A stretch of DNA of 44,704 nucleotides, from contig JAGQOU010000043.1 of assembly GCA_020427145.1 (NCBI GenBank), positions 1-44,704 of the forward strand, given 5' to 3'. Shown here piece by piece: positions 11,137-40,269 of the stretch (its first letter is position 1; each line of letters begins with the position of its first letter). A program made the translations under genes and the position numbers. A model generated the notes under the pieces. It was not told the origin of the DNA and ran no database searches. It saw nothing but the letters and a program-made list of their open reading frames with translations. Source of the DNA: Planctomycetales bacterium (lineage in GTDB: Bacteria; Planctomycetota; Planctomycetia; Pirellulales; Lacipirellulaceae).

Positions 11137-12672
11137 TCATGGCGAAACTGAAGCTGATCCGCGCCTCGCGGAGTCCAGCAGTGATCGCAGTTCGTCGAGT
11201 ACGACCGGCTGCTGCTCGCTGAGGTTTGTCGTTTCCCCCGGGTCGTCATTGAGATTGTACAGTTGCGGCGTTTGGCTGTTGGCCAACTCCATGTGCGTAT
11301 CCCAGTTGATGGCCTGTCCGCGGGCGGGTTCGATGTATTTCCACGGCCCTTTTCGAATCGCGAGTTTCTGCGAAAGGCCGGAATGCTCGATGACGAAGTC
11401 GCGCCCGGTCTGTGTTTCGCCGAGGAGCGCTGGCAACAGGTTGAGACTATCGGGCGCCGCATCGGCAGACGTTGGCTCGGCGCCCGCTAGCGCAGCCAGC
11501 GTTCGAGGCAGGTCAATTTGGCTGATCATCGCGTCCGAGACGCCGGGCTGCACGCGCCCCTTCCAATAAACGACCCAGGGGACGTGAGTTCCCCCCTCGA
11601 AGCGGCTGTACTTGCCGCCGCGGTAGGGTCCGGCGGGGCGATGATTGCCGAGTCGTTTGACCGCCTGGTCCCGGTACCCGTCGTCAATCACGGGGCCATT
11701 GTCGCTCGTGATGATGACCAGCGTGTTGTCAGCGACGCCCAGTTCTTCCAGTGCCGCGACGATTTGCCCGACGCACCAGTCGAATTCGACGACCGAATCG
11801 CCGCGCGGTCCATGCGGGGTGCGACCAACGAATCTCGGGTGAGGAACTCGGGGCACATGAATTTGTTGCGCCGAGTAGAAGAGAAAGAACGGCTTGTCAT
11901 GGTTCCGCACGAGAAAGTCGCGGGCTTCGTTGACGAACACCTCGCCCATCGTTTCGTCATTCCAGCGCGCTGAGCGGCCGCCGGTCATGAAGCCAATCCG
12001 GCCGATGCCGTTGACGATCGAATCGTTGTGGCCGTGGGTCCAATCCATCTTCAGGTCGTCGCGGTGCGTGACGCCAGTCGGCTGGCCGTCTGGGTTCTTC
12101 TCGAAGACATCGACCGGATCGGCCGGGTCGAGGTCGACGACACGGTGGCCGCGAACGTAGACGCACGGCACGCGATCATTGGTCGTCGGCATGATAAAGC
12201 TCTCGTCGAAGCCAATCTCCAGCGGTCCCGGGTTGATCTCGCCCGACCATTCTGGCTTGGGAGGTTCCCCCAGCCCCAAATGCCATTTGCCGACGATGCC
12301 CGTGCGATAACCAGCGTCTTTCATCATAGAAGGCAGCGTCGGAGTCCCCGGCTTGATGAGTGCGGGGCTGTTTGGCGGGGCAATTCCTGTATCGCGTCGA
12401 CGCCAAGCGTAGACGCCAGTCAGCAGGCTGTAGCGGCTGGGAGTGCAGGTCGCCGACGTGCAATAGCCGGACGTAAAACGCTGTCCCTCGGCCGCGAGCC
12501 GGTCGATGTTCGGCGTGGGAATCGTCTTCGCCCCGTAGCACCCAAGGTCGCCGTACCCGACGTCATCGCCGTAGAGGAGCACGATGTTCGGCCGGTCGGC
12601 CGCTGGGGCCGGGCTTGCGGCCAGGGGGAGCAATGCGAGGGAAATCGTCGCAATGACAGTTATGCGAATCAT
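11137..12672 (-). CDS. Secreted arylsulfatase
   Basis: 511 residues from the ATG at 12672; an in-frame TTG at 12678 adds two. The signal peptide is about residues 1-26 (MIRITVIATISLALLPLAAS, then PAPAADRP). Sulfatase S1 hallmarks are YGDDVGYGDLGCYG, the formylglycine site CTPSR at 76-80 (Cys76), GKWHLGLGEP, SDNGPVIDDGY and a substrate-site-like YRGGKYSRFEGG block. The layout is that of the arylsulfatase A / N-acetylgalactosamine-6-sulfatase group. It is the third consecutive minus-strand sulfatase. Its formylglycine core differs from those of its neighbours (CTPSR against CAPAR and CSPSR), so these are not recent tandem copies and probably act on different positions or sugars. Confidence 0.93.
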   Translation of the reverse strand: MIRITVIATISLALLPLAASPAPAADRPNIVLLYGDDVGYGDLGCYGAKTIPTPNIDRLAAEGQRFTSGYCTSATCTPSRYSLLTGVYAWRRRDTGIAPPNSPALIKPGTPTLPSMMKDAGYRTGIVGKWHLGLGEPPKPEWSGEINPGPLEIGFDESFIMPTTNDRVPCVYVRGHRVVDLDPADPVDVFEKNPDGQPTGVTHRDDLKMDWTHGHNDSIVNGIGRIGFMTGGRSARWNDETMGEVFVNEARDFLVRNHDKPFFLFYSAQQIHVPRVPHPRFVGRTPHGPRGDSVVEFDWCVGQIVAALEELGVADNTLVIITSDNGPVIDDGYRDQAVKRLGNHRPAGPYRGGKYSRFEGGTHVPWVVYWKGRVQPGVSDAMISQIDLPRTLAALAGAEPTSADAAPDSLNLLPALLGETQTGRDFVIEHSGLSQKLAIRKGPWKYIEPARGQAINWDTHMELANSQTPQLYNLNDDPGETTNLSEQQPVVLDELRSLLDSARRGSASVSP

Positions 12673-12747
12673 GCTCAACGTCGGTGGATTGATGTTGGTA
12701 AATGCGGGAACGTGAAGAATTGAAATGCGACTTGCAGCGGCATCTCG

Positions 12748-15700
12748 CTAGGCAATCTCCGTCGCGCGACAGCGTGCGTGTCGGAAGCGCCGGGCCCCCG
12801 GCCGTCGCCTGGCGAAGCCGACGACGTACGACGAAGCGGCTGCGCACATGGCAAGGGCGAGCGAGACCGGCTCAGGCGTCGTCAGCAACGATTGCGAAGC
12901 GGACGAAGCCGCATACTGGCGTTGCCAGAGGAGGAAGTCGTTGCCGTCGGTCGTGCCGTTGAGATCCACGTCGCCGCCATCGCCGCCGCCGTAGCTGCTG
13001 CTCCAGATCGCAAGATCTTGAGGGCCGACGACGCCGTCAAAATCCAAGTCGGCCTCGGAGCCGGCGAAGAACAGCGTCAACTCGTTTCCCGCGTACCGAG
13101 GAACAAGCACGCCGCCGGCGATTGCGGGGGTCGTGATCGAATCGAACCGACCGTTGAGGCCGCCGGCGGCGGTTAGGACGGTGAAGGCGTCGCCAAATTG
13201 CGGAGCGAACCCGGCAATCGAGCCTATCTCGAGAGTTCCAGCCAACGCCGCGTTGCCGTCAACGACTAACATGTCATGATCCTCGGGGCTGAGCAGGTCC
13301 ATCTGCAGCGTGCTGCCGGCGTCCTGCACATAGTCCCCCTGGACATGAAATGCGGTTGGCAACGGGTCGCTTACGCTGACGATCGCATCGTAGTTTTGCG
13401 CGACCTGAGCGGCGTCGAACGCGACGTTCCGATAGTAACGAACCGCCGCAATCTGGCCGTGATAGTCGATCGGCGTTCCGCCGGCGCCAAGCGAGTCGGC
13501 CGACGCGCCAATTCCCGACGTGTTGCCCCCCGCCCAGTCGTCGATCAGCACGTTGTCGACCGTTCCCGCCAGCGCGTTGTCGACGTACAGCGAGATCGAA
13601 TCATTCGCCAAGTCGTCGTTCGTCCCCTCGATGTCGACGACTCCGACGGCATGCCGCCACCCCGGCGCGACGGCGGTCGTAACAGAAATTGTGGGGCCGG
13701 AGCCGTCGCCGTTGACGTTGAAGCTGAGCATCGCGTCGTTGAGTTGCAGCGACAGTCCGCGGCCCGCGCCGCCCGCCTCGAAAATGACCTGATCACCGCC
13801 GGCGCCGGTGCTGTCGACGTAGAACCAGGCCTCAAACGTTGCGTCCTGAACGCTTCGCGGTCCGTTCAATTCGAAGTAATTGTTCAATCCCCCTGCCCCG
13901 CCCGCCGCCGCGACGTCGTACGCGGCCGAGAGTTGCGGAACAGCGGCGTCCGTGATCGAAACAGTCGCAGCAGCGCCGGCGAAGCTCAGGCTTTGTCCGG
14001 ATTGGGCGTCAATCCAGACGGCATCGCCCCCCAGGTCGAGCGCCGCATCGAAATTCAGATCGAGCCCTGCCGAGACGATCGGCGCAGCTAGAGCGGTTTC
14101 ATTGAACCCGACGCCGCCCACGGTAGCCGTCGAATTGACGAGCTGCAGATTGCCGGAGATCGTCGCCGCGCTATTTAGCACGGTGACTTGCGAGTTCGCG
14201 GCGGCGACCAGCGATCCCAGCACCTGCCCTCGCAGCGTTAGCGACCGCCCGGCGATCGTATATCCCATGGCGTGCGCGGCGACGTCCAAGACTCCGTCGT
14301 TGTCGACGACAATGTTCGACGCGGGACTCAGGGCGCCGCTGCCAGTGACCTGCAGTTTACCCTGGCGTACGACTGTATCGCCCTGATAGGTATTTGCCGC
14401 GGATGAGATGATGAGCGTTCCGGCGTCGATCTTCTCGATGCCGCCCCCTCCTCCGCCGCCGGGCGCCACGATGGCGCCGCTGACGACAAGCGAGCCGTCG
14501 CCGCCAAACTTCGACGTGGCGTGCAGCGTGGAGATTCCGGAGATGACGTGCGTGCCGTCGATCGTCTGCTTGGCGTCGATCGTGCCGCCGTAGAGTTCCA
14601 GCGATTGCGTGAAGCTGGCGCCGGAGCGATCGGGCGCGTCGCCCAGGGCCAGGACCGCCCCGCCATCGACGCGGGTCGCGCCGCTGCCGGCCAGCACGCC
14701 CCCGCCGGATAGATTCAAGACCCCGGCGGAAACTTGCAACAGCCCGCGGTTATTGACGGACGTGCCGCGCATCGTGACGGTATTTGACGAAAGTTTCTGT
14801 AGCGAGGCGCCGGCGTCGATTTCGACCCACCCGCCGCCGACGCCCCAGTTGGCCGACCCGGTCAGTTCGCTCTCGCCCTCGATGGCGTAGACATAGGTCA
14901 CCGCATTGTCGACTGCCGCACCCGTGTTGCGGATCTCGCCACCTCGGAGGTAGATCGTGTCCTCCCCGTGCGAGGCTCCTGCCACGTCGAACGCTTCCCC
15001 GGCCAGGTAGCTCGGTATGTATTGGTCGCCGATCACGGTCGGGCGCCACAACCCGCCGATCTCTTCAACGAGTCTTGAATCGTCCTGCTCGCCATTGTCC
15101 GACTGGCCGTATTGCCACCACGAGTAGCGATTGACGTAGGAACGGCTCTCCAAGCCGGGGATCACGACGTTGAGAAACGCTGCATTCGCGGCGATTAGGT
15201 CGGGACTGGTCACGTCGTCGTCCCCGAAGTCGAGGCCGGCGAATTCGGTGATCCAAATCGGTTTTTGGTACTGATTCCAATATTGGTCGACGGTCGACAG
15301 GAAGCTGTTCGCGGATTGCACCGGATTGGTCGTGCTCACGTTGCCGTACCAGTGGAAGGCAATCTCATCGACCTGCAGATCGTTGTCGGGGTCGCCGTCG
15401 CTGTTGCGGGCGTCGACGATCGACATGAATTCTTCCAGCCACACTTTGCCCTCGTTGCCGGAGCCCGCCGGGCTGACGAGCTTGAGTCCTGAACCAGCGA
15501 AGCCGTCGGTCATAACGTCCCACACGTCGATCGCCTGAGCGACCGTCATGTTGGCCTGCGACGATCGTTCGGGTTCGTTGAACCCGAGGACGTACTGCAC
15601 ATTCAAGTCGTTTTGATAGCCCAGGATCTGGTTGACCTTGGGGATCACGTTGGACGTGTTAGAGCTCCAGATCATGGGGACGTATTCGCCGTTGAATTCG

Positions 15701-15879
15701 TCGATGGCGGCGTTCGGCGTGCTGCCCCACTGATAATACCACCGCGAATTGAGCGCGTTGGCATTGTCGATCGAGCCGCCGGCGATGCCGCGCTTGGCGT
15801 CCTGCCCGTGACACGGAGCAGCAAGCGCCACGGCGGCCGCCAGACAATGGAGCGCGACTCGAGTTGCGTTCAAGGGCAT
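12748..15879 (-). CDS. GH128 (Asl1-like) endo-beta-1,3-glucanase with LamG-like, dockerin-like and PEP-CTERM display module
   Basis: 1043 residues. Signal peptide at 1-26 (ALAAPCHGQ). Residues 30-270 form a GH128 / Asl1-like TIM barrel: NSRWYYQWG, the likely acid/base Glu102 in GFNEPE and nucleophile Glu212 in WITEFAG. This family cleaves beta-1,3-glucans. Residues about 280-600 are repeat-rich beta strands of autotransporter-associated type. From about 600 the protein carries a module also present in the 16007 and 21049 genes: LNFDAALDLGGDAVW, a LamG-like lectin fold (YHGQIAAVRYYRN), a conserved beta domain, a dockerin-like pair (DFDGVVGPQDLAIW and DGNDFLLWQRQY), and a PEP-CTERM signal (TPEPVSLALAMC, a hydrophobic helix, then FARRRPG). 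The tail after the RRR is unusually long, about 20 residues. It is likely exosortase-processed and surface-associated. Confidence 0.9.
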   Translation of the reverse strand: MPLNATRVALHCLAAAVALAAPCHGQDAKRGIAGGSIDNANALNSRWYYQWGSTPNAAIDEFNGEYVPMIWSSNTSNVIPKVNQILGYQNDLNVQYVLGFNEPERSSQANMTVAQAIDVWDVMTDGFAGSGLKLVSPAGSGNEGKVWLEEFMSIVDARNSDGDPDNDLQVDEIAFHWYGNVSTTNPVQSANSFLSTVDQYWNQYQKPIWITEFAGLDFGDDDVTSPDLIAANAAFLNVVIPGLESRSYVNRYSWWQYGQSDNGEQDDSRLVEEIGGLWRPTVIGDQYIPSYLAGEAFDVAGASHGEDTIYLRGGEIRNTGAAVDNAVTYVYAIEGESELTGSANWGVGGGWVEIDAGASLQKLSSNTVTMRGTSVNNRGLLQVSAGVLNLSGGGVLAGSGATRVDGGAVLALGDAPDRSGASFTQSLELYGGTIDAKQTIDGTHVISGISTLHATSKFGGDGSLVVSGAIVAPGGGGGGGIEKIDAGTLIISSAANTYQGDTVVRQGKLQVTGSGALSPASNIVVDNDGVLDVAAHAMGYTIAGRSLTLRGQVLGSLVAAANSQVTVLNSAATISGNLQLVNSTATVGGVGFNETALAAPIVSAGLDLNFDAALDLGGDAVWIDAQSGQSLSFAGAAATVSITDAAVPQLSAAYDVAAAGGAGGLNNYFELNGPRSVQDATFEAWFYVDSTGAGGDQVIFEAGGAGRGLSLQLNDAMLSFNVNGDGSGPTISVTTAVAPGWRHAVGVVDIEGTNDDLANDSISLYVDNALAGTVDNVLIDDWAGGNTSGIGASADSLGAGGTPIDYHGQIAAVRYYRNVAFDAAQVAQNYDAIVSVSDPLPTAFHVQGDYVQDAGSTLQMDLLSPEDHDMLVVDGNAALAGTLEIGSIAGFAPQFGDAFTVLTAAGGLNGRFDSITTPAIAGGVLVPRYAGNELTLFFAGSEADLDFDGVVGPQDLAIWSSSYGGGDGGDVDLNGTTDGNDFLLWQRQYAASSASQSLLTTPEPVSLALAMCAAASSYVVGFARRRPGARRFRHARCRATEIA

Positions 15880-15952
15880 TCGATTGATTCACTCAACAAT
15901 TGGGATCGAGCGCCAGGCGAGTGCGACCTTCTCGTCGCTCCAGGGGCAGCGG

Positions 15953-15966
15953 CGTCGGGTCCGACG
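15953..15966. other. Small perfect hairpin between large genes
   Basis: CGTCGG (15953-15958) and CCGACG (15961-15966) form an inverted repeat with a minimal loop, in the 124-base gap between two minus-strand genes. There is no T-run. It could mark a transcript end. Confidence 0.25.
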
Positions 15967-16003
15967 GCGAGTCGCTGGTGATTGCGGGCCGCACGCTCGG
16001 GCT

Positions 16004-19000
16004 TCAATGCAAACGTTTCCGCCGGGAGGCGACGAGGCAACCGGCGCTCAGCGCCGCCAGCAGCAGCGCCGCCGGCTCGGGCACGCCCGCCGAGGCGCCA
16101 ATCGCCGGCGCGCCGACGCCGAAGTTCGACTCCCAGTCGGTCAGGTCGCTCGCCCCGTACGTCCCCGGATAGCCGCGTTGCCAAGCGAGGAAATCGGCGC
16201 CATTCACTTTGTTGTCGCCGTTGAAGTCGCCCGGCGTGCTGCCGCCGGAGATGACGCTCAGAACGCCGGTCGACAGCAGGCTCGACTGATCCCAGGCCAG
16301 TCCGCCGCTGAGCAAGGGGAGATTCACTGCCCCGAAACTTCCGCTAAGCGATGCGAAGTCGAGGATGTCGAACGAGTCGCCCAGGCCGACCGTGCCGACC
16401 AGGCTTACGTCGAGCGTGCCCGCCGCGGCGAGGTTGCCCGACACCGACAACAGGTCGTTACCGACCGTCGCGTCGAAGATGTCAATCTGCACGGTCGACG
16501 TGGCGTCGAGCGTGAGATTGCCGTCCACGGTGAACGTGTCGACCCCGACGAACGGCGCGGCTTGCAACGCGAGGAAGTTCGTATTGACGTCGCTGGCCGT
16601 TAAGGCCGCCTGGTAGTAGCGGGCGACGGCGATTTGACCGTGGTAATCGTTTGGCGACACGATTGTCGCGGGGCCGGCGTTGGTCTGCGTCCCGTCCAGC
16701 ACCACGCTGTTCGGACCGCCAAAGCCCCAGCCGTTGCCGCCGGACCAATCGTCGATTTGGTTGGTGTTGGCGGGTGAGCCGACCACAGCGTTGTCGACGT
16801 ACAGCGTGAATTCGTCCGTGGCGCCCGCGCCGGCGCCGATGACGACCACCGCGTGATGCCAGCCGGTGCTCAGAGCCCCGGTTGAGTAAGCGATCGTATC
16901 GGCGGTCACCGTATCCACTCCGTTCACGCCGGCGGTGAGTACCGCGCCGTTGAGCAGCAGCGATACGCCCGTGCCGCCGCCGATGTCCATCAGCACCTGG
17001 TCGTTCCCTCCGGCTGCGTTGGTGACGTTGAACACCACTTCAAAGGTCCCGGCGTTGAGCGCGCGGGAGTCGAAGTAGGCGTTATCTGCGCCTGGCGACA
17101 GGGCCGCGCCGCTCGTGGGGATATCATACGCCTTGGTCAGCGCGGTGAACGTCGGGTCGCTCACGGCGACGGGGGTCGCCTGGCCGTTGCCAAAATCAAG
17201 ATCGACGACGCCGGCGTTCGGTTCGGAGTCGCTCCAGACGTCGTCGCCCTCGATGTCGAGGGCCGCATCGTAGTTGAGTTGCCGACCGGTTGTGACGCTC
17301 GCCAAGCCCGCCGCGACGCCGCCGACGCGCAGCGTGGAGTTCGCCGTGGTCGTCACGTTGCCGACGACCGTCCCGGCCCCCCTGAGCATCTGGCTGGATA
17401 GGGCCAGGGCGCCGCTGCCGGTGGTTGTCACGTCGAGCGTCGCTCCTGCTTTCAGTTCAATCGACGGCGAGTTGGTGATGGCCGCCGTGCCTTGAAGAAC
17501 CGTCCGGCCGGCGCCGCTGACGGTCGTGTCGCCGGTATGCGCCAGGTTGCTGCTGACCGCCAGTATGCGATTGGCGGCGGGCGCGAGGTCCAGGGCTCCC
17601 GAGCCAGAGACGCCGCCGGCGATCGTCATACCGGGCACGATCCCGTCGCCGGCGTCCGTACCGACGCGGCCGCCAGTCCCCGACACCACGATCGGAGCCG
17701 TCCAGGTGACTTGTCCGCTATTGGCCGGCGTCGCAAAGTTATCGGTAGGATAGGTCGCATTGAGCGCTCCCCCGGCGGTCAGCGTCACATGCTCATTGAC
17801 CGACGCGTTGGCAAAGTAGCCGACGTCCAGACTGCCGCCGTTGACGACGGTTCCCGTAGCGACCGTGCCGTCGGCGGATCCCATAGCCATGGATTGGCGC
17901 GCCCGCAACGTGCCGTCGTTGATAGTCGTGACGCCGCTGTAGGTATTGTCGCGGGCCATGTCGATGTAGCCCGAGTTGACGACCACTCCCCCGGTTCCAG
18001 AGATTGTCTGGGTATTGAACGAGTAACCGACCCGGTCGTAGATCAGCGTGCCGTTGTCAACGACGCTGCTGTTGGCGGCCAATTGCCCCGTGTTGCTGGC
18101 GCCGTCGCCCAGAGTCAGCGTGGCGCCGTTTGCGATTGTCACGCCGCCGATGAAACTGTTAGCCGAGTTGGCCAGCACCGCCTTGGCGTTGGCATTGAGC
18201 GTCATGGCCCCCGAGCCTTCGATGCCGACGCCGGTGAACGTGTAGGTCGATGTCGTATTGGTGAAGTTCATGCTGCCGGGGGTCACCGGAGCCGCGATGT
18301 CGATCGTCGTGTTGGTCGGCCCATTGCCGAACGTGACGGCGTCGAGGTCGAAGAACAGGTTGTCGCCGGCAGACCAGTTGGCGGTCGAACCGACGTTCCA
18401 AACGCCGTTGACTGCTCCGGTCCACGTGCGGGCCGCGGCGGCAGCGAAGCTGACGGTCACGGCGGAGCCAGTGACGTTGACCACCGACGCGTTGTCCTGA
18501 CGGGAATTGAGCAACGTGCCCTGGGGGTTGAACAGCGAAAGATTGAAATCACCGCTGGCGGCTCCGCCGGCAATGCTGCCGCCAGTCATCAAGGTATAGG
18601 TTCCCGCTGCCAGCGATCCGGCCGCAGGCGTCACGCGCAGGTTGAATTTGTTGCCGGAGGGCGCGAGCGTGAGCGTGTTGCTCACGGCCAACAGGTCGTT
18701 GACCCCGCCGCCGATGGTGGTGGCGTTGCCCAGATCGAACTCGAATCCGCCGCTGGGATTGGCGGCAAAGAGGCCGACATTCAAATTGCCCGTGACTTGC
18801 AGCGTCCCGACGCCGTCGCCGGGGGCAATCCGCGAATCTTCGAACGCTCTGATCGTGTTGCCGCCGGTGTTGATCGTGCCGCCGCCGGTCAGCAATTGAC
18901 CGATTTCGTCGCCGTTGCCCGGCGTGGCGTCGGGGTCGCTGACGACCTGCAGCGAGTAGGTCGTGAAGTTCGAAACGTCGAACGTGGCGCCTGCTCGCAC

Positions 19001-20917
19001 GTCAATCGACGAGGAGGCCAATTCGCCGGCGTTCAACCCGTCCTGCAGCACCGCCAGCGTTCCCGACTCGATCGTGGTCGACCCGCCCCAGTAGCTGCCG
19101 GTGGCGTTTGTGGTGTCGGTGCTGGCCACGGCCGTGGCGATCGTGACGCGATCCGTAGGATCGGTCAGGGCGACGATCACGTCGACGTTCGGTCCGACAA
19201 TCTTGCCGGTGCCGGGCGTGTTTTCGTTGCCGATTTTGAAGTTGCCCGTGCCTTGGAAGCGAATGTTCACGTCGCCGTCGTTGCTGTCAAACACCTTCGC
19301 CGCGCCCGCGGCGTTGTTGATCGTGAGCGTCGTGCCATTCGCGGCGTTTTCGAAGTTGCCGTAGGTCGTCGCGGCGCCGCCGACGTCGATTGCGCCCGTC
19401 AACTGATTGTTGCCGGCCGTGTTGCGAATATGGGCCGTCGGGTTGTTGACGTTACGGGCCAAGATGCGATTGAAGTTTTCGGCGATCGTCAGGTTGCCGC
19501 CGGAGCCGTCGAGCTCGACCGTTCCGGCCGCCGAGGCGACTTGCGTGCCCCCCACGGTCGTGCCGAGCCCCGTATTGCTGCGCACGACCAGCGTGCCGCC
19601 GTTCACGTTGATGTTGCCGTCCAAGGCGGCGGCATTGGCCAAGGCCAGACTGCCGTCGCCCGTCTTGGTCAGCGCTCCCGCGCCGCTCACGGCGCCGGTG
19701 ACGTTCAGGTTGTTGGCAGCGTCGGCCACGTTGACCGTGCCGGCGCCGGTCATGGTGACGCTGCGCGAGAGCGCAGTGAAGGTCGTGCCGTTGATCTGCA
19801 AGCCGCCGCCGTTGAAATCCAAGCCGTTGGCGGCATTGCCCAGATTGCCGTTGCTGCTTACCGCGAGCGTGCCGGCGTTAAGCGAGGTGAAGCCCGTGTA
19901 GGCGTTGGCGCCCGAAAGGGTGACGGTCCCGGCGCCAGTCTTTTTCAGGCCGGCCGAGCCCAAGATGGGAGCGCCGATCACGTGCTCTCCACTGGTGGCT
20001 TGAATCGTCGCGGCGCCGGACAGGGTGAGCGAGTTGCCGCCGCCGTTGGCGATGGTGTAAGCGTTGGCGTTGTCGAACACGATCGTGTCGACGACCGGGT
20101 TGACGTTGAGCGTGACTGTGGCGGGGGCGGTGATGGCGCCCAGGAAGCGCGCCTGACTGTCGACCAATCCGCCGACGCCCGGAACCTGTGGGTCGCTCGT
20201 CCAGTTGCTGGCCGTGTTCCACAACCCCGAACCGGCAATGTTCCACTCCGGCGGCGGACCGCCAGCGGGGACGAAACTACCGCCGACGCTCAGCGGTATT
20301 CCGCCCTGCCCCGAGGGCGATTCACCGACAGGCCGACTCTTGAACCGAAGATCAAGCGGATTGCCAGCGCCATCCGACCCGCTGATTTCAAACCTAAAGT
20401 TCGTCGCCAATCCGTCCCAATCGAAGGACAAGGGGGTGTCAAATTCCCAGACGTATTCAGACGTGACGGAAAAACTCAATTCGTTCGACACGGTCCCCAC
20501 GACGACATCGTCAATCCCTCCCAAAACGCCATCGGCGCCGAGGTAACTGATCGTCAGGTCCATCGTGGTTGCCGTGGTGCCGCCGCGCAACGGAAATCCG
20601 AGTCCCGTAAAGGTGACGGCGCCAGCGAGGCCCGGAGACAGTCCTGTCGCCCAATTGTTGTTGACGCCGCTCACCCCATCGAGAATTCGAGCTGGGCTGA
20701 AGGCCGCAGCGGCCGCGGTATCGCCGCCGCCGGTTCTTGCCTCGTCAAACAGCAGGCCGGCAGCGTCGCCGGCGTCCGGCGCCGCGTTCTGGTTGCCGAA
20801 GTAATCGGTCACGTCGCCGGGAACGATCGTCGCTGCTACCGCTCCAGGGCCGTGCGACCAGGTCGCCAGAGAAAATGCCAGGGCCGCCGTTAGGGCGATG
20901 TGTCGTCGCGTGGTCAT
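16004..20917 (-). CDS. Giant autotransporter-associated beta-strand repeat protein with LamG-like, dockerin-like and PEP-CTERM C-terminus
   Basis: 1637 residues with a signal peptide (ALTAALAFSLATWSHG, then VAA). Residues about 29-255 form a distinct domain (AGLLFDEARTGGGD, GLGFPLRGGTTAT, LSFDWDGLATNFRFEISG) that recurs as a free-standing protein at 24878. Then WNTASNWTSD opens about 950 residues of autotransporter-associated beta-strand repeats (LKKTGAGTVTLSGANAYTG, LTKTGDGSLALANAAAL, YSGVTTINDGTLRARQ). These are expected to form a long beta-helix. From about residue 1210 comes the same C-terminal module as in the 12748 and 21046 genes: LNYDAALDIEGDDVW, LamG-like (GQIAVARYYQ), beta domain, dockerin-like GDFNGDNKVNGADFLAWQRG and PEP-CTERM (VPEPAALLLAALSAG ending SRRKRLH). 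No catalytic motif is visible, so it may be an adhesin, matrix or glycan-binding scaffold. A long open frame on the opposite strand is a composition artefact. Confidence 0.9.
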   Translation of the reverse strand: MTTRRHIALTAALAFSLATWSHGPGAVAATIVPGDVTDYFGNQNAAPDAGDAAGLLFDEARTGGGDTAAAAAFSPARILDGVSGVNNNWATGLSPGLAGAVTFTGLGFPLRGGTTATTMDLTISYLGADGVLGGIDDVVVGTVSNELSFSVTSEYVWEFDTPLSFDWDGLATNFRFEISGSDGAGNPLDLRFKSRPVGESPSGQGGIPLSVGGSFVPAGGPPPEWNIAGSGLWNTASNWTSDPQVPGVGGLVDSQARFLGAITAPATVTLNVNPVVDTIVFDNANAYTIANGGGNSLTLSGAATIQATSGEHVIGAPILGSAGLKKTGAGTVTLSGANAYTGFTSLNAGTLAVSSNGNLGNAANGLDFNGGGLQINGTTFTALSRSVTMTGAGTVNVADAANNLNVTGAVSGAGALTKTGDGSLALANAAALDGNINVNGGTLVVRSNTGLGTTVGGTQVASAAGTVELDGSGGNLTIAENFNRILARNVNNPTAHIRNTAGNNQLTGAIDVGGAATTYGNFENAANGTTLTINNAAGAAKVFDSNDGDVNIRFQGTGNFKIGNENTPGTGKIVGPNVDVIVALTDPTDRVTIATAVASTDTTNATGSYWGGSTTIESGTLAVLQDGLNAGELASSSIDVRAGATFDVSNFTTYSLQVVSDPDATPGNGDEIGQLLTGGGTINTGGNTIRAFEDSRIAPGDGVGTLQVTGNLNVGLFAANPSGGFEFDLGNATTIGGGVNDLLAVSNTLTLAPSGNKFNLRVTPAAGSLAAGTYTLMTGGSIAGGAASGDFNLSLFNPQGTLLNSRQDNASVVNVTGSAVTVSFAAAAARTWTGAVNGVWNVGSTANWSAGDNLFFDLDAVTFGNGPTNTTIDIAAPVTPGSMNFTNTTSTYTFTGVGIEGSGAMTLNANAKAVLANSANSFIGGVTIANGATLTLGDGASNTGQLAANSSVVDNGTLIYDRVGYSFNTQTISGTGGVVVNSGYIDMARDNTYSGVTTINDGTLRARQSMAMGSADGTVATGTVVNGGSLDVGYFANASVNEHVTLTAGGALNATYPTDNFATPANSGQVTWTAPIVVSGTGGRVGTDAGDGIVPGMTIAGGVSGSGALDLAPAANRILAVSSNLAHTGDTTVSGAGRTVLQGTAAITNSPSIELKAGATLDVTTTGSGALALSSQMLRGAGTVVGNVTTTANSTLRVGGVAAGLASVTTGRQLNYDAALDIEGDDVWSDSEPNAGVVDLDFGNGQATPVAVSDPTFTALTKAYDIPTSGAALSPGADNAYFDSRALNAGTFEVVFNVTNAAGGNDQVLMDIGGGTGVSLLLNGAVLTAGVNGVDTVTADTIAYSTGALSTGWHHAVVVIGAGAGATDEFTLYVDNAVVGSPANTNQIDDWSGGNGWGFGGPNSVVLDGTQTNAGPATIVSPNDYHGQIAVARYYQAALTASDVNTNFLALQAAPFVGVDTFTVDGNLTLDATSTVQIDIFDATVGNDLLSVSGNLAAAGTLDVSLVGTVGLGDSFDILDFASLSGSFGAVNLPLLSGGLAWDQSSLLSTGVLSVISGGSTPGDFNGDNKVNGADFLAWQRGYPGTYGASDLTDWESNFGVGAPAIGASAGVPEPAALLLAALSAGCLVASRRKRLH
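20270..20834 (-). repeat. Duplicated segment, copy A (N-terminal domain of the 1637-residue protein)
   Basis: This segment encodes the roughly 225-residue N-terminal domain and matches 24976-25527 closely at DNA level. Long stretches are identical, for example CCAGACGTATTCAGACGT at 20447-20464 and 25136-25153. The copies differ by small in-frame indels, such as a GNPL insertion here. The close match suggests a fairly recent duplication or gene conversion. Confidence 0.85.
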
Positions 20918-21045
20918 TGCGAACCGCCTTTAAAGAGAATACTTAGTAGGTGCTTCGAGGGAAGTGGTTTGCGAGTTGATCTTTTTTTTGTGCGATATGT
21001 CTGACGTGGTTTCGAGAGACGGCTGTCGCTCCAACCTCGCTCGTG

Positions 21046-24000
21046 CTACAGGCCGGCGGCAATGCCGGCCCCCTTACAGACCAGCAGCGCCACGCCGCCG
21101 CAGAGGGCGACCAGCCGGCTGGATGGTTCCGGTACGGCGCCGAGCGTGGTGACGCCCGCGACGGGAGTCGTACCGTACTGCGAACTCCAAATCCGCAGGT
21201 CGTTCTGGTCGACGACGCCATTGCCGTCGGCATCGCCGTTGGCGTTGCTGGTTTGCCCCGTTTGACCGAGTCCGCGCTGCCAAATCAGGAAGTCGGCCCC
21301 GTTGACGGCGCCGTCGTCGTTGAAGTCGGCGCCCAGAATCAGCGTGGCGTTGACGGCGTTCGCTTCATACTCGACAAGCCATTCGAACTGGCCCGCGTCA
21401 GGCAATGCAATCGAATCAAACCGCCCCGACACGCCCGCCGATGCGAACAGCAAATCGTACGAATCGCCGACGGCGGGAGCGAAGCCGCTTTCTGCGGACA
21501 CGACCAAATTGCCGCCCAGCGTCGCGAGTCCTGTGGCCACGACGCTGTCGTGAGTCGCGGGGTCTCGCAAATCAAGCTCCAACGTCGCGTTGGCCTGCAT
21601 GAGAAAGTTGCCGTCGATGTTCAACACCGACGCGACCGTTTCCACTGTCGCCGTGTCGCCGGCCAGCAGCGACTGATAGTTTTGCGTCACGTCGGCAGCG
21701 CTGAACGCCAGGTTGTGGTAGTATCGCCACAACGCCACGTCGCCCTGGAACGCCTGGGCGCCCGCCACCGTGGCGGTCGACCCCGTGGGGTCCAAAGCGC
21801 CTCCCGACTCCTGGCCAATTCCCCAGGCGTTGCCGCCGGCCCAATCGCCGATGACGACCCCCGTCTGCGTTGAAACGAGGCTGTTGTCGAGGTAGAGCGA
21901 CCAGCTGTCCTTCGGGGCGCTGCTGCCGTCCAAGTCAATCACCACAACGGCTTGATGCCAGCCGGGAGTCAGCGTTGCCGTTTGCAGCAACGTGCCGGCA
22001 TCGCCATCGACGCCCGCTTCCAGCTGAGCCCCGTCGAGCACAAGCGACACGCCCCGAGTGGCGCCGACGTCCAGCAGCACTTGGTTGTCGCCCGCGCTGA
22101 CGTCATTGACGCGAAATACGACTTCAAACGTTGCGTCCGACCGGCTGCGCGTCGGGCTGCCCGCTTCGAAGTACGTGTTTGAGCTGCTCGGCGAAGAGGC
22201 GCCGCCAACCGTCCCCGTGGAGTACGCCGCGGTCAGCCGCTGAAGGGTCGGATCGATAACCGAAATCGCGGAAGCCGCCCCGCCGAAATCTAGCCCGATC
22301 TGTTCGCTGCGTGCGGTGGCGTTCCACACCGCGTCGCCCGAACCGTCGGCCGCCGCGTCGTACTCCAACGCCAGGTGGGACGTCACCGGCTGCGGTCCGG
22401 GCGTCACCGTGATTTGCGATTCGCCGAACCCGCCGCCGCCGACGCGGATTGTCGTGCCCGCCTGGGCGATGACGTTGTTGGCTTTGACGGTCGCGCTGGC
22501 GAACTCGACGGTCCCGCCCTGGACGGTCAGATTGCCCGTCAGGTCCGTCCCGCCGCCGATCCACGCTGTGCTATTGCCCGACTTGACGACGTTGCGTTCG
22601 GGGCGGAATTCGCGAATCCGCCCATTGATTCGGAATTCTTGGTTGCCGTCGCCTTGAATCGTCAGGTCGTCGTAAACCTCGACGTCGGCGTCGAGGTTGA
22701 ACGTAAACAGTCCGGGCGCCGCGTCGGTCGCATCAAGATTGATCTCGGGCCCGTCGCCCTTGCGATTCTTGACCAGCAGCAGCGCGTCGCCGTTGATTGT
22801 TCCGGAGTGCGGCGCAGCCAACGCCGCGGGTTGACTTGTGAAATTGATCGTGTTCGTCATGTAGGCGAACCCGCCAACAGACGTCAGATTGTTCGTGACG
22901 ACGTAATCGCCGCTCGGCTTTGTGCGAAACGTCAATTGGTTGTCGGCATAGCCGTCGCGCCAGGATGCGGTGTAGCTGCCGGTTCCCGTGTCGCCGTTCG
23001 TCCAGGCGTCCGCAGAGGTGAACGTGGCGGCCGTGAACGCGGCCTCGCGGAATTGAAAGTGATCGAACTGGTTAGTTTCGGGCGCCTGATTGTCGTGCCG
23101 GGGTTTGTCCAGCTGCACATGGTAGCTGGCTAGCAACTGATGCAATTCTTCCACCACCGCCGCATTGGCCGGTGCGTCGACCACGTTGTTCGACTCGTCA
23201 ATGTCGTCGTCCAGATTGTAAAGTTGGTAGCCCGTGCCGTTCTGATACATGTACTTCCACGGTCCCCTCCGCACGGCCGACTGCTGATTGTTGAACCGGG
23301 GGATGAAGAGATTTTCGTGCGGAACGCCGGCCGCGGTTCCGTTGACGTACGGCAAGAGGTTGACCCCGTCGATGACGTCGTTGGCGCCAAAGGAGCCGCC
23401 CGCGGCGCCGAGCAGCGCAGTCGGGACAATGTCGATCGAGTGAACAAGGTCGGTCGACACGGTGCCGCGGGCGGCCGAGTTGACGCCCGCGCCGGCGATG
23501 ATCATCGGCACGCGCAGGCCGCCCTCAAACTGACTTCCTTTGCCGTTGCGCAGATCGCCGTTGTCGCTGGCGTTGGGGTCGCCGTCGCAGCAATCGCCGC
23601 CGTTGTCGTTGATGAAGATTACCAGCGTGTCGTCGAGGATGCTGTCAGCATCCTTGCCCGGCCCGACGCCGTCGCCGGCCGGGTCGGCCAATGCCGCCAT
23701 GACTTTGCCGACGTTGCGGTCCATTGCGTACTGCATCGCCGCGTAGGTTCGCCGAGTGCCCGTGAAGCCTGGCTCGCCAAGCGAGTCGATGTAAGCCAGA
23801 TCCGCGGCGGTGGCCTGCAGCGGCGTGTGCGGCGCCGTGAAGGACGTGTAAAGAAAGAACGGCTCGGCGCCCCCCGCATTGTTGCGGATGTAGTCGGCCG
23901 ATTGGTTGCCAAACACGTCGGTCACGTACTGGCCGCTGTAGTTGCCTTCGATGACGACATTGGACGTCACCCCGCCGGCGCCGTCGGAAATCGTCTCGCG

Positions 24001-24648
24001 CAGGGCGCCGGCGCCCGTCGTGCTGCCAACGGTGTAGCTCCGCGAACCTTCCCACAGGCCCTGGAAAAACTCGATGCCCTGATTCTCCGGCCGATTTCCC
24101 AGCTGCCCGCCGCCGTCGGCGTGCTCGCCCAAATGCCACTTGCCGACCGCCGCCGTGGCGTAACCGGCCCCCTGCATCCGTTCCCACACCGTGGTGATTT
24201 CCGTGGGCAGGCCCTGCACGGTTGACGCGTTGTTGATGGCGGTCGTACTGGATTGGATGTTCGAGCCGTAGCCGAACCGCGTGCCGTACTGCCCGGTGAC
24301 GATCATCGCCCGCGACGGGCTGCACACCGCCCCTGTGTAAGCGTTGGTGAACGCGACGCCCTGGGCGGCCAACGCATCCAAGTTGGGCGTCGGCACGGCG
24401 CCACGATTGCCAGGGTCGGCCGCCGAGTCGATGTTGCGCATGAAGCCGTAGTCGGCCCAGCCGGCATCGTCGGAGATGATGACCACGACATTGGATTGGG
24501 CGTTTGCCGCAGGCAGCGGGTTCAGCAGCGTCGTCACGATGGCGAGAACCGTAGCCCATGGGGGCAGACGCCTAAGCGTCGATCGAGTTGGATTCGTGCT
24601 ATTCACGGATGTCGATTCTGTGGTGGTGGTCGCCTCGATGCGCGACAC
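21046..24648 (-). CDS. Sulfatase fused to LamG-like, dockerin-like and PEP-CTERM surface-display module
   Basis: 1200 residues from a GTG at 24648. A GTG at 24606 would trim 14 residues and leave a more standard signal peptide (RRLPPWATVLAIVTTLL ending AANAQ). Residues about 52-520 are a full S1 sulfatase: VVIISDDAGWADYG, formylglycine site CSPSR at 109-113 (Cys109), GKWHLGEH, INDNGGDCCDGD. Next come beta-strand repeats (DGNQEFRINGRIREFRPERN, GGTDLTGNLTVQGGTVEF). From about 760 is the shared module: LEYDAAADGSGDAVW, LamG-like (FEVVFRVNDVSAGDNQVLLD), beta domain, two dockerin-like repeats (GADFNDDGAVNGADFLIWQRG and DADGNGVVDQNDLRIW) and PEP-CTERM (AVPEPSSRLVALCGGVALL). Most sulfatases are soluble and half this size; this one appears built for cell-surface retention. 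Its basic C-terminal tail is weak (CKGAGIAAGL), with only one Lys after the helix. Confidence 0.9.
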   Translation of the reverse strand: MSRIEATTTTESTSVNSTNPTRSTLRRLPPWATVLAIVTTLLNPLPAANAQSNVVVIISDDAGWADYGFMRNIDSAADPGNRGAVPTPNLDALAAQGVAFTNAYTGAVCSPSRAMIVTGQYGTRFGYGSNIQSSTTAINNASTVQGLPTEITTVWERMQGAGYATAAVGKWHLGEHADGGGQLGNRPENQGIEFFQGLWEGSRSYTVGSTTGAGALRETISDGAGGVTSNVVIEGNYSGQYVTDVFGNQSADYIRNNAGGAEPFFLYTSFTAPHTPLQATAADLAYIDSLGEPGFTGTRRTYAAMQYAMDRNVGKVMAALADPAGDGVGPGKDADSILDDTLVIFINDNGGDCCDGDPNASDNGDLRNGKGSQFEGGLRVPMIIAGAGVNSAARGTVSTDLVHSIDIVPTALLGAAGGSFGANDVIDGVNLLPYVNGTAAGVPHENLFIPRFNNQQSAVRRGPWKYMYQNGTGYQLYNLDDDIDESNNVVDAPANAAVVEELHQLLASYHVQLDKPRHDNQAPETNQFDHFQFREAAFTAATFTSADAWTNGDTGTGSYTASWRDGYADNQLTFRTKPSGDYVVTNNLTSVGGFAYMTNTINFTSQPAALAAPHSGTINGDALLLVKNRKGDGPEINLDATDAAPGLFTFNLDADVEVYDDLTIQGDGNQEFRINGRIREFRPERNVVKSGNSTAWIGGGTDLTGNLTVQGGTVEFASATVKANNVIAQAGTTIRVGGGGFGESQITVTPGPQPVTSHLALEYDAAADGSGDAVWNATARSEQIGLDFGGAASAISVIDPTLQRLTAAYSTGTVGGASSPSSSNTYFEAGSPTRSRSDATFEVVFRVNDVSAGDNQVLLDVGATRGVSLVLDGAQLEAGVDGDAGTLLQTATLTPGWHQAVVVIDLDGSSAPKDSWSLYLDNSLVSTQTGVVIGDWAGGNAWGIGQESGGALDPTGSTATVAGAQAFQGDVALWRYYHNLAFSAADVTQNYQSLLAGDTATVETVASVLNIDGNFLMQANATLELDLRDPATHDSVVATGLATLGGNLVVSAESGFAPAVGDSYDLLFASAGVSGRFDSIALPDAGQFEWLVEYEANAVNATLILGADFNDDGAVNGADFLIWQRGLGQTGQTSNANGDADGNGVVDQNDLRIWSSQYGTTPVAGVTTLGAVPEPSSRLVALCGGVALLVCKGAGIAAGL

Positions 24649-24877: not shown

Positions 24878-25591
24878 TTAGCGAGAACGCCGCTTTCGCA
24901 GCGCGACGATCCCAACGCCAGCGACGGAAAACGCCGCCAACGCGAGGCTGCAGGGTTCCGGGACTCCTGTCCGCGTGAAGCTACCGCCGACGCTGAGCGG
25001 CAAACCGCCAGCGCCCGATGGCGATTCACTGGCAGGCCGGCTTTTGAATCGAAGGTCGCCATCCAACCCGCTGATTTCAAACCTAAAGTTCGTTGCCAAA
25101 CCGTCCCAGTCAAAGGACAACGGCGCGTCGAATTTCCAGACGTATTCAGACGTCGGTGAAAAGTTCAAATCGTCCGAAACCGATCCCACGACTTCATCGT
25201 CAGTTCCGCCAAAAACTCCGTCGGCGCCTAAGTATTTGATCGTGAGGCCGATTCTGGTTGCCGTTGTGCCGCCGCGCAACGGAAATCCGAGTCCCGTGAA
25301 CGTGACGCTGCCAGCGGCGCCCGGCGACAGGCCGTCCGCCCAATTGTCGTTCGTACCGCTCACTGCATCGAGACTTCGAACTGGGTTGAATACCGCAGCG
25401 GCAGCGGTATCGCCGCCGCCCGTTCTCGCCTCGTCAAACAGCAAGCCCGCCGCGTCGCCGGCATCCGGCATCATGTTCTCGTTGCCGAAGGAATCGGTCA
25501 CGTCGCCGGCGACAATCGTCGCGGCGGGCGCCCGGCACGCCAACGCGGCAACGACTATGGGAAGCAAAAGCAAAGGTCGAGTGAATTTCAT
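24878..25591 (-). CDS. Small PEP-CTERM protein homologous to the N-terminal domain of the 1637-residue repeat protein
   Basis: 237 residues from the ATG at 25591, with GGAG eight bases upstream; an in-frame alternative start at 25609 adds six. The signal peptide is MKFTRPLLLLPIVVAALACRAPA. The mature part (TIVAGDVTDSFGNENMMPD, GLLFDEARTGGGDTAAAA, GLGFPLRGGTTAT, DWDGLATNFRFEISG, SESPSGAGGLPLSVGGSF) is nearly the same as residues 29-255 of the protein encoded at 16004-20917. It ends directly in a PEP-CTERM signal (GVPEPCSLALAAFSVAG, then ALRKRRSR) with no repeats, LamG or dockerin. It therefore shows that the N-terminal region is an independently folding exported domain. Function unknown; I see no catalytic motif. 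Confidence 0.88.
   Translation of the reverse strand: MKFTRPLLLLPIVVAALACRAPAATIVAGDVTDSFGNENMMPDAGDAAGLLFDEARTGGGDTAAAAVFNPVRSLDAVSGTNDNWADGLSPGAAGSVTFTGLGFPLRGGTTATRIGLTIKYLGADGVFGGTDDEVVGSVSDDLNFSPTSEYVWKFDAPLSFDWDGLATNFRFEISGLDGDLRFKSRPASESPSGAGGLPLSVGGSFTRTGVPEPCSLALAAFSVAGVGIVALRKRRSR
24976..25527 (-). repeat. Duplicated segment, copy B
   Basis: Partner of 20270-20834, in the same orientation about 4.7 kb away and separated by the sulfatase-fusion gene. See copy A for the matching stretches. Confidence 0.85.
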
Positions 25592-25732: not shown

Positions 25733-26203
25733 TTAGCGCCGCCCCTTTCGAGGCGGGGCGCCGGTGAGTTCGAAATCGGCCTGATCGGTCCCCCCGGTCG
25801 CGACGGTCGCGACCAACTCCGTAGATCGGTTGTATCGCCAGGGGACGCGTTCTTCCGACACGACTTCGACCGCGTCGGAATTCTTAATGTCCTTGAACTG
25901 CGACTTGAATGTCGAAATGCGCACCGTATGTTGCCCAACAACCGCCCCAGGCTCGTCTTTGAATGTCGATAACGTGTAGCGACCCTCGGCGTCGGTCGTA
26001 CCAACCGAGCCGGGCCCCACGATGCTTCTCTCCGGACCGCCGCGCGGTTCGTAACTCACCGTGGCGTTGGCCAACGGCTCGCCATTGAGCGTCACGGCGC
26101 CGGAAACCGGGGCAAGTTCGTACGGCGAATCCGCGCAGCCTGCGCACGCCGCGATCATGACGAACGCGGCCAGGCCATGTGTGGTAATGCTTCTGGGGGT
26201 CAT
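25733..26203 (-). CDS. Lipoprotein with carboxypeptidase-regulatory-like (transthyretin-type) domain
   Basis: 156 residues from the ATG at 26203; the open frame continues upstream but overlaps the DUF1559 gene out of frame. The N-terminus is a lipoprotein signal with two candidate lipobox cysteines in MIAACAGCADS (Cys20 or Cys23). The rest is one Ig-like domain of the carboxypeptidase regulatory-like type: VSGAVTLNGEPLANATVSYE, TTDAEGRYTLSTFKDEPGAVVGQHTVRIST, then PWRYNRSTELVATV. In planctomycetes such small lipoproteins very often follow DUF1559 prepilin-like genes, as here (26 bases apart). The terminator at 25703-25727 closes the operon. Its biochemical role is unknown; a periplasmic structural or binding role is plausible. 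Confidence 0.85.
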   Translation of the reverse strand: MTPRSITTHGLAAFVMIAACAGCADSPYELAPVSGAVTLNGEPLANATVSYEPRGGPERSIVGPGSVGTTDAEGRYTLSTFKDEPGAVVGQHTVRISTFKSQFKDIKNSDAVEVVSEERVPWRYNRSTELVATVATGGTDQADFELTGAPPRKGRR

Positions 26204-28872: not shown

Positions 28873-29399
28873 AATGCATGCTCCCCGCGAGCCAGCGTTG
28901 CTTCGATGCAACGGTACAAGGCGCGGCGGATGCGACTGAGAGAATTCGAGACGCCAGCGGCCGGCCGATTGATGCGTTCGGCGACCTTCTTCACCGTGGC
29001 GTCGGGCTCGTAGCATTCGACCACCAGCGAACGATCCTCCGGGCTGAGCTTGTCCAAGCAAGCGCTCAGCGCTTGCCGACGGCGCAGACGCATGTCGTTT
29101 TCCTGAGCGGCCTGCGAGTCAGCAAGGAGTTCAATCATTGTTGCCGAGAATACTTTTCGTCGTCGGCGCGTTTGGAAATGATTCAGAGCGCAGTTCTTGG
29201 CGATTTGAGAGGCCCAGGCGCCGAAATTCGTACCCACTTCGAACCGATCAAAGTGGCGCCACATCGTCACCGTCGCTTGTTGCATCAAATCCTCAGCGTC
29301 TTCGCGGTGACAGACCAGGGCGTAGATGAAGCCGAAGATCTGAGCCTCGTGCGCGGCCAGCAGTTCCAGGAACTGCTCGTTTCGTAACTCGTCCTCCAT
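28869..29399 (-). CDS. ECF RNA polymerase sigma factor (Rhodopirellula/Verrucomicrobium family)
   Basis: 176 residues from the ATG at 29399. A GTG/ATG-type start further up at 29513 would add 38 residues that look unlike the family. Region 2 is at about 9-82 (FLELLAAHEAQIFGFIYALV, REDAEDLMQQATVTMWRHFD, FGAWASQIAKNCALNHF) and region 4 at about 115-168 (LDKLSPEDRSLVVECYE, VAERINRPAAGVSNSLSRIR). There is no extension typical of other ECF groups. It is co-directional and overlapping with the FecR-like gene, so the pair is an ECF sigma with its membrane anti-sigma. In this phylum such pairs are found beside sulfatase and glycosidase genes. The divergent GH128-sulfatase genes at 29733-32010 are candidate targets. 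Confidence 0.93.
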   Translation of the reverse strand: MEDELRNEQFLELLAAHEAQIFGFIYALVCHREDAEDLMQQATVTMWRHFDRFEVGTNFGAWASQIAKNCALNHFQTRRRRKVFSATMIELLADSQAAQENDMRLRRRQALSACLDKLSPEDRSLVVECYEPDATVKKVAERINRPAAGVSNSLSRIRRALYRCIEATLARGEHAL

Positions 29400-29732
29400 G
29401 GTCCTGCTCACTAACGGCCTGGCTTGTTCGCGGCGAAATCTTGCCGAGACTCTCAAAGCGCACGGGTTACCCAATTGCAGCCAGAACCGCGAACGAAAAA
29501 ACTTCTTCACCAACCAGTTAAGTTGGCGCGGCGGCCCGATCTAACGCAAGAAATCAGAAGAATCTCAACAAAAAAATGTTGCTGACTTTTGCCTCAAATA
29601 ACTCTGGAAACGGGGGGAAATCAAGCTACTCTCGGTTTCGAGGACCGCCGCGGAGCATGACGATTTCGTTCCGACTTGGCGGATGCTCGACCCCCCCTCA
29701 TCCAACGATCACCCCCAACGAGAGCGGGCGCG
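29400..29732. other. 333-base divergent intergenic region between sigma operon and GH128-sulfatase operon
   Basis: No gene is seen here. The stretch 29540-29620 is markedly more AT-rich than its surroundings. It contains a small hairpin CAACA/TGTTG around six A (29566-29581) and a CCAAC/GTTGG inverted repeat (29510-29526). It should hold the promoters of both flanking operons. A GGAAAC ... CTACTCT arrangement at about 29611-29635 on the plus strand loosely resembles an ECF promoter but is unproven. Confidence 0.5.
29539..29568 (-). promoter_or_regulatory. Candidate promoter for the ECF sigma operon
   Basis: On the minus strand TTGAGA (29568-29563) and TTAGAT (29544-29539) are separated by 18 bases. 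The -35 is a good match to the housekeeping consensus and the -10 is poor. It lies about 140 bases upstream of the chosen sigma start, implying a long leader. Confidence 0.3.
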
Positions 29733-33113: not shown

Positions 33114-33158
33114 GGCTCGCGTGCTCTCGATGCAAGGGCCGGCGTGCGGCCGACGGAA

Positions 33159-34025: not shown

Positions 34026-34075
34026 GAGTTGTCGCGTTGCATTTCACGCATTGAAGAGGAGGTCAATTGGTTGGG

Positions 34076-40246: not shown

Positions 40247-40269
40247 CGAACGATTTCCTGTAGAGCAAA

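What the first reader, a model, noticed from the sequence alone, without database searches (positions are those of the whole stretch)
12751..22375. One ~430-residue C-terminal cassette attached to three unrelated N-terminal modules
The proteins at 12748 (GH128), 16004 (beta-helix repeats) and 21046 (sulfatase) end in the same order of parts: an opening strand motif (LNFDAALDLGGDAVW, LNYDAALDIEGDDVW, LEYDAAADGSGDAVW), a LamG-like lectin domain ending in an RYY motif, a beta domain (LQMDLLSPEDHDMLVVDGN and relatives), dockerin-like repeats and a PEP-CTERM signal. The opening motif plus LamG plus beta domain behaves as one mobile unit (about 14075-12751, 17285-16007 and 22375-21049). It looks like a standard display-and-bind tail for extracellular enzymes.
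Basis: seen in the sequence. Interest (0 to 1): 0.72.

Follow-up and report, generated by a model that had tools for sequence, protein, structure and literature searches.

The report
Neighbour enzymes sharing a lectin-solenoid tail
Three neighbouring genes of a planctomycete (a sulfate-removing enzyme, a glucan-cutting enzyme and a long repeat protein) end in the same tail of stalk, sugar-binding-like domain, stalk cap and surface-sorting signal; the tail is not a free-roaming unit, because its pieces assort separately in the genome, but the genes of this conserved cluster have swapped tails with one another.

Summary
The shared tail is real: the three C-termini align at 33-38% identity (E 6e-47 to 6e-71). 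The reading as one general mobile cassette is not supported. In this genome the LamG variant occurs strongly only in these three adjacent genes, whereas the 'beta domain' occurs at 36 places; none of 31 other ORFs carrying it has the LamG variant, though they include a GH128, two sulfatases, a BNR_4 protein and a protease. The opening motif is the first part of the LamG (ConA-like) fold. The beta domain is a 105-residue solenoid cap whose predicted fold matches autotransporter autochaperone regions (IcsA 3ML3: Z 10.5, 2.0 A, 101 residues), yet the proteins have no barrel and end in dockerin-like repeats plus PEP-CTERM. The three genes form a conserved sigma/FecR-linked locus found in a few Pirellulales and one Phycisphaeraceae MAG. 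Within that locus tails were exchanged between neighbours: sulfatase tails are not one clade (AU p 1e-51), identity switches near residue 700, and different gene pairs are alike in different genomes. Best reading: surface-displayed sulfated-glycan enzymes on a solenoid scaffold with a swappable lectin slot.

The parts
28869..29513 (-). ECF-type sigma factor at the head of the locus
   Evidence: Pfam Sigma70_r2 5e-15 and region 4
27343..28872 (-). FecR-type protein, likely sigma regulator (ATG at 28872 read in the sequence)
   Evidence: PF04773 3.9e-5; orthologue heads the locus in L032/L034, L112/L113, L118 and (partly fetched) L108, L109
26230..27270 (-). DUF1559 pilin-like protein
   Evidence: PF07596 2e-47; syntenic orthologues
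25733..26203 (-). small lipoprotein-like gene
   Evidence: orthologues 49-59% identical at the same position in other loci; start read
24878..25591 (-). short PEP-CTERM protein whose N-terminal domain (24953-25531) is a near copy of the N-terminal domain of the 16004 gene
   Evidence: 77% aa over 198, 80% nt over 564 nt; only 33-37% to the counterparts in other genomes
21046..24648 (-). S1 sulfatase + solenoid + shared tail (SULF)
   Evidence: PF00884; C109-S-P-S-R motif; nearest solved chain 6PRM, exo-4S-kappa-carrageenan S1 sulfatase, E 2e-59
21655..22386 (-). LamG variant of SULF, including the opening motif
   Evidence: profile A2/A4 hit; ConA-like fold
21331..21654 (-). beta domain of SULF: autochaperone-like solenoid cap
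   Evidence: profile A3/A6; homologous to the folded W_GH copy
21049..21330 (-). dockerin-like repeats and PEP-CTERM-like tail of SULF
   Evidence: PF00404 25.1 bits; VPEPSS plus hydrophobic stretch, no model hit
16004..20917 (-). long PATR beta-solenoid protein with shared tail (BH)
   Evidence: PF12951 6e-13, TIGR02601 3e-13
20249..20842 (-). N-terminal domain of BH, shared with the gene at 24878
16541..17296 (-). LamG variant of BH
16232..16540 (-). beta domain of BH
   Evidence: 76% identical to the Bythopirellula BH copy
16007..16231 (-). dockerin-like repeat and PEP-CTERM of BH
   Evidence: TIGR02595 17.1 bits
12748..15879 (-). GH128 + PATR + shared tail (GH)
   Evidence: PF11790 2e-44; E102 (NEP) and E212 (TEF) present; nearest solved 6UAQ E 3e-24
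13363..14076 (-). LamG variant of GH
   Evidence: PF13385 47.1 bits, cut-off 27.6
13054..13362 (-). beta domain of GH
   Evidence: model of 13054-13368 pLDDT 95.5; fold matches
12751..13053 (-). dockerin-like repeats and PEP-CTERM-like tail of GH (extended end)
   Evidence: sequence; no model hit
11137..12678 (-). downstream S1 sulfatase of the locus
   Evidence: PF00884 2e-54; 64-66% identical orthologues in L109, L112 and L118

Best explanation
The three genes are the core of a conserved, sigma/FecR-linked surface-enzyme locus. Each protein is Sec-exported, carries its active part at the N-terminus, then a PATR-type right-handed beta-solenoid stalk, then a ConA-like lectin domain in a slot, then a 105-residue C-terminal solenoid cap with the autochaperone-like fold, then dockerin-like repeats and a PEP-CTERM signal for exosortase sorting. 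The cap probably closes the solenoid and may help it fold, the LamG domain probably binds the glycan that the sulfatase and GH128 act on, and PEP-CTERM places the protein at the surface. The tails stay alike because neighbours in the locus exchange them by recombination, not because the tail roams the genome. Shown: domain order, homology, distribution, conserved locus, incongruent trees, intact catalytic motifs, exosortases in the genome. Inferred: export, glycan binding, folding role, display, substrate, and the recombination mechanism.
For: Restricted LamG variant: 3 strong hits in the genome, all here; one further weak hit of 35 bits at C363 with a wider profile. All 17 hits of 200 bits or more in the two profile surveys lie in SULF, GH or BH genes. 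Conserved order of the locus in L031, L032/L034, L033/L112, L108, L109, L118. Tail exchange: SULF N-parts of window and Bythopirellula 73% identical but LamG only 47%, while Byt SULF and Byt GH tails share 66/64/67% in LamG/beta/end; the LamG tree puts SULF tails in three places, AU p 1e-51 for one SULF clade and 2e-5 for one GH clade; window SULF switches near residue 700 from Byt-like (mostly 70-88%) to Phycisphaeraceae-like (73%) and back near 1050; Byt SULF-GH 70% nt over 1113 nt, Phy SULF-BH 71% nt over 1242 nt. Widespread cap: 36 places in this genome, 27 of 199 phylum genomes. Cap fold: 3ML3 (IcsA autochaperone) Z 10.5, rmsd 2.0, 101 aligned; IgA1 protease, pertactin, Ssp, Hap, EspP matched at their C-terminal passenger ends, close to the autochaperone ranges listed in PMC5767081. 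LamG fold: AbnA domain 4 with arabinotriose (5HON) Z 19.7, 2.6 A, 190 aligned. Three exosortases. All 16 complete SULF/GH/BH proteins end in a PEP-like motif.
Against: No binding, localisation or folding data. Pfam AC_1 has no sequence match to the cap, and CBM89 (7JVI), not an autotransporter, matches equally well (Z 10.6), so the cap may be a generic beta-helix end. SULF and GH C-termini are not recognised by PEP-CTERM models. Only 17 tails in the core tree, some branches weak. The exchange could also involve lost paralogues or other genomes.
Confidence: 0.68

Rival explanations
1. One reading: opening motif + LamG + beta domain is one mobile display-and-bind cassette attached to many enzymes.
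For: Three copies with the same order; in Bythopirellula the whole tail from LamG to PEP-CTERM looks replaced together.
Against: Only three strong LamG-variant copies in the genome, all adjacent; 31 other cap-bearing ORFs lack it; other domains fill the slot; LamG variant found at an N-terminus.
Confidence: 0.1
2. Plain ancient duplication: one tail duplicated once into three genes, then vertical descent without exchange.
For: The BH tails form one clade (97/94); locus order is conserved.
Against: SULF and GH tails are not clades (AU p 1e-51 and 2e-5) while N-part identities follow gene type; abrupt identity switches.
Confidence: 0.1
3. The beta domain is a generic C-terminal rung-and-hairpin cap of any beta-helix, with no autochaperone role.
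For: 7JVI (CBM89) matches as well as IcsA; no AC_1 sequence match.
Against: Autotransporter passengers matched near their published autochaperone ranges; PATR repeats, typical of autotransporter passengers, precede it.
Confidence: 0.45
4. The dockerin-like repeats dock the enzymes on a cohesin scaffold, as in a cellulosome.
For: Dockerin_1 match in SULF; a cohesin/dockerin complex has been proposed in other planctomycetes (PMC6461901).
Against: No cohesin PF00963 in this genome, though 72% complete; repeats are degenerate in BH.
Confidence: 0.06

Closest known systems
Classical (type Va) autotransporter passengers with autochaperone, e.g. IcsA, pertactin, Ssp (PMC5767081, PMC9977779)
   Same: Catalytic or adhesive domain, PATR beta-solenoid, ~110-residue autochaperone-fold end piece
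   Different: No C-terminal barrel (no PF03797 in the genome); a lectin domain sits between stalk and cap; dockerin-like and PEP-CTERM end; no AC_1 sequence match
PEP-CTERM/exosortase-sorted extracellular proteins (PMC1569441)
   Same: C-terminal PEP motif and hydrophobic segment, exosortases in the genome
   Different: Dockerin-like repeats, solenoid cap and lectin slot in front of the signal; two of three tails are below model detection
Laminin_G_3 / ConA-like carbohydrate-binding domains (PF13385; AbnA domain 4, 5HON)
   Same: Fold, position as accessory domain of enzymes
   Different: A subfamily with a conserved L-x-[YF]-D-A-A-x-D opening; no PDB sequence match; ligand unknown
S1 sulfatases near S1_19 carrageenan sulfatases and GH128 endo-beta-1,3-glucanases
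   Same: Catalytic domains with intact motifs
   Different: Combined in one locus with a shared tail; subfamily and substrate not established here
Multi-domain planctomycete sulfatases, some with laminin G (PMC4807772)
   Same: Sulfatase fused to LamG and other domains, gene fusion noted as a driver
   Different: The passage read does not describe a shared tail, a conserved locus or tail exchange

Membership tests
Laminin_G_3 / ConA-like lectin | PF13385 above curated cut-off | tested here: met
   GH copy 47.1 bits vs 27.6; SULF and BH copies reach it only through homology to the GH copy
Laminin_G_3 / ConA-like lectin | ConA-like jelly roll | tested here: met
   Model residues 253-499: Z 19-20 to ConA-like domains such as AbnA domain 4
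Laminin_G_3 / ConA-like lectin | carbohydrate binding | not testable with these tools
   needs a binding assay
Type Va autotransporter | PATR beta-helical passenger | tested here: met
   PF12951/TIGR02601 in GH and BH; SULF region only solenoid-like
Type Va autotransporter | C-terminal translocator barrel (PF03797) | tested here: not met
   Proteins end in PEP-CTERM-like tails; no PF03797 hit in the 72%-complete genome
Autochaperone domain type 1 | fold of the IcsA autochaperone | tested here: met
   Z 10.5, rmsd 2.0, 101 of 105 residues to 3ML3
Autochaperone domain type 1 | PF18883 sequence model | tested here: not met
   No hit for 12 members or in the genome at E 1
Autochaperone domain type 1 | required for passenger folding | not testable with these tools
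   needs deletion and trans-rescue
PEP-CTERM | TIGR02595 / PF07589 match | tested here: inconclusive
   BH 17.1 vs 16 bits (TIGR02595); SULF and GH no hit; motif visible in all 16 complete locus proteins
PEP-CTERM | exosortase in the genome | tested here: met
   3 PF09721 genes over cut-off
Cellulosome-type dockerin | dockerin repeats (PF00404) | tested here: inconclusive
   SULF 25.1 vs 22.9 bits; GH and BH no hit
Cellulosome-type dockerin | cohesin partner | tested here: not met
   no PF00963 in the 72%-complete genome
GH128 | family profile and two catalytic glutamates | tested here: met
   PF11790 2e-44; E102 and E212 present, aligned with 6UAQ
S1 sulfatase | PF00884 and C-x-P-x-R motif | tested here: met
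   6e-40; C109SPSR

The most novel reading that the evidence does not exclude
Planctomycetes have turned the autotransporter passenger (PATR stalk plus autochaperone cap) into a barrel-less scaffold, sorted by exosortase, with a lectin slot between stalk and cap; neighbouring enzymes of one locus trade these tails, so that the enzymes acting on one polysaccharide keep the same binding and anchoring end.
Probability: 0.4. Interest if true: 0.66.

Novelty: new variant of a known kind. Interest (0 to 1): 0.5.

Why it matters
The autochaperone has been described as exclusive to beta-helical autotransporter passengers (PMC5767081, whose survey covered autotransporters only). An autochaperone-like cap on barrel-less, PEP-CTERM-ending enzymes in planctomycetes makes it testable whether the cap is a general beta-solenoid folding nucleus independent of outer-membrane translocation. 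The locus also offers a natural series of tail exchanges between neighbouring enzymes, which may help in predicting which planctomycete sulfatases and glycosidases work on the same substrate.

Tried and rejected
Pattern scan of 84,980 species found only 6 loci; the pattern route is narrow and misses divergent copies. In searches over many genomes only about 6 candidates per genome were scored, so weak copies are undercounted. No PDB sequence matches the LamG variant. Pfam AC_1 and Autotransporter barrel not found. Cohesin not found. Many of the LamG fold matches are clostridial neurotoxin binding lobes; this is the shared ConA-like fold and no sign of a toxin. Literature: no paper held at least three of Planctomycetes/PEP-CTERM/dockerin/LamG, and none joined PEP-CTERM with 'autotransporter-associated beta strand'. 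The 100% DNA matches between Botrimarina SULF and GH ORFs are an artefact of overlapping stop-to-stop frames. Cellulosome-like docking and simple vertical duplication were considered and set aside.
Full report
What was checked. Pfam gives GH128-type Glyco_hydro_cc, PATR repeats and Sulfatase. The tails align pairwise at 33-38% identity with E 6e-47 to 6e-71 and score 557-722 against shuffle maxima of 97-108. Homology begins somewhat before the opening motif, in PATR-like solenoid, and the opening motif itself belongs to the LamG fold: the structural matches start at model residues 253-258, which are residues 752-757 of the sulfatase, just before LEYDAAAD at 761.

The pieces assort. With the whole sulfatase tail as query the genome gives 143 places (cut at 150 scored candidates), most covering only the dockerin/PEP end. 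A LamG-only profile gives three places, all in this window; with a wider profile one further weak place at C363 (35 bits) appears. A profile of the beta domain gives 36 places. Of 31 other ORFs with the beta domain, none has the LamG variant and most end in PEP-CTERM; they include a GH128, two sulfatases, a BNR_4 protein and an aspartyl-protease domain. In the GH128 paralogue (L124) a different domain that looks ConA-like fills the place between solenoid and beta domain, in a paralogue of the repeat protein (L126) a CBM-like domain does, and in one sulfatase (L142) the solenoid runs straight into the beta domain (the two domain names are read from sequence and untested). In the Phycisphaeraceae homologue one LamG variant sits before the solenoid and one after it. 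In standalone LamG proteins next to the locus in other genomes, sequence reading suggests dockerin-like repeats inserted inside the LamG domain, seen directly in two.

The genes are a conserved locus. Relatives of the LamG variant in other genomes are not scattered enzymes but the same three genes in the same surroundings: FecR, DUF1559 pilin, lipoprotein, short PEP protein, SULF, BH (or a standalone LamG protein), GH128, sulfatases. In the window an ECF sigma factor precedes FecR. Strong copies were found in 7 genomes of the same family out of at least 30 listed, in one Pirellulales MAG and in one Phycisphaeraceae MAG; the only other genome held of the same genus, 95% complete, has none. The distribution is patchy, so loss or horizontal transfer is likely.

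Tails were exchanged between neighbours. The sulfatase N-parts of the window and Bythopirellula are 73% identical, but their LamG domains only 47%; the Bythopirellula sulfatase tail is instead closest to the GH128 tail two genes away, in LamG (66%), beta domain (64%) and end (67%). The LamG tree places sulfatase tails in three separate places, and one sulfatase clade or one GH clade is rejected (AU p 1e-51 and 2e-5). The groups were chosen by gene type, not from the tree. Sliding identity shows the window sulfatase switching near residue 700 (about window 22550) from Bythopirellula-like to Phycisphaeraceae-like and back near residue 1050 (about 21500), inside the beta domain. At DNA level Byt SULF-GH tails are 70% identical over 1113 nt and Phy SULF-BH tails 71% over 1242 nt, while the window's three tails hardly align. 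The window has a recent exchange or duplication of its own, but at the other end: the N-terminal domain of the BH gene and that of the short PEP protein at 24878 are 77% identical in protein and 80% in DNA, against 33-37% for the counterparts in other genomes.

What the parts are. The LamG variant is ConA-like, near AbnA domain 4, which was solved with arabinotriose; glycan binding is inferred. The beta domain folds with high confidence (pLDDT 95.5) and matches the IcsA autochaperone region (Z 10.5, 2.0 A, 101 residues) and the C-terminal passenger ends of pertactin, IgA1 protease, Ssp, Hap and EspP, near the ranges that PMC5767081 lists as autochaperone (residue numbers differ by up to about 25). 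CBM89, a beta-helix xylan-binding module, matches as well (Z 10.6), and the AC_1 sequence model does not match, so membership in the autochaperone family is not claimed, only the likeness of fold and position. There is no autotransporter barrel in the genome, but three exosortases and no cohesin; the genome is 72% complete.

Catalytic parts. The GH128 keeps both glutamates and is nearest to 6UAQ. The sulfatase keeps the C-x-P-x-R motif and is nearest to an exo-4S-kappa-carrageenan S1 sulfatase. With further sulfatases downstream this points to a sulfated polysaccharide, but the substrate is unknown.

Verdict. A real shared tail, misread as a free cassette. It is a scaffold of stalk, lectin slot, cap and sorting end, whose parts assort in the genome and whose tails are traded within one conserved enzyme locus. 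The least expected point is the autochaperone-like cap on barrel-less, PEP-CTERM-ending enzymes. In the 5.39 million papers searched, one paper mentions both autochaperone and planctomycetes, once each.

Noticed in passing
window 24953-25531 and 20249-20842: N-terminal domain of the short PEP protein and of the BH gene are 77% aa / 80% nt identical, far above their counterparts in other genomes: a recent exchange or duplication inside the locus.
   Followed up: yes
L032:3950-5680 and L035:3982-5703: Standalone LamG proteins of the locus appear to carry dockerin-like repeats inserted within the LamG domain, between its opening strand and the rest.
   Followed up: partly
L116:4738-6621 and L116:9171-11999: In another sulfatase locus a 'GNGDFE...GSEGINFTN...' module is shared between a LamG protein and a neighbouring sulfatase, a second case of module sharing between neighbours.
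   Followed up: no
L036 (Roseiconus nitratireducens), residues 1374-1600 and beyond: A giant protein (over 4000 aa) holds several LamG domains with the same LNYDxALD opening motif.
   Followed up: no
L111:9349-12358: The GH128 homologue of genome G412 is split over two reading frames.
   Followed up: no
window 38552-40273: GHL10 glycosidase-like protein that also ends in dockerin-like repeats and a hydrophobic tail, without the LamG.
   Followed up: partly
window 32070-42150: Neighbouring sugar-metabolism genes: two Gfo/Idh/MocA oxidoreductase-like ORFs, AnmK kinase, sodium:solute symporter, FAD-dependent oxidoreductase.
   Followed up: no
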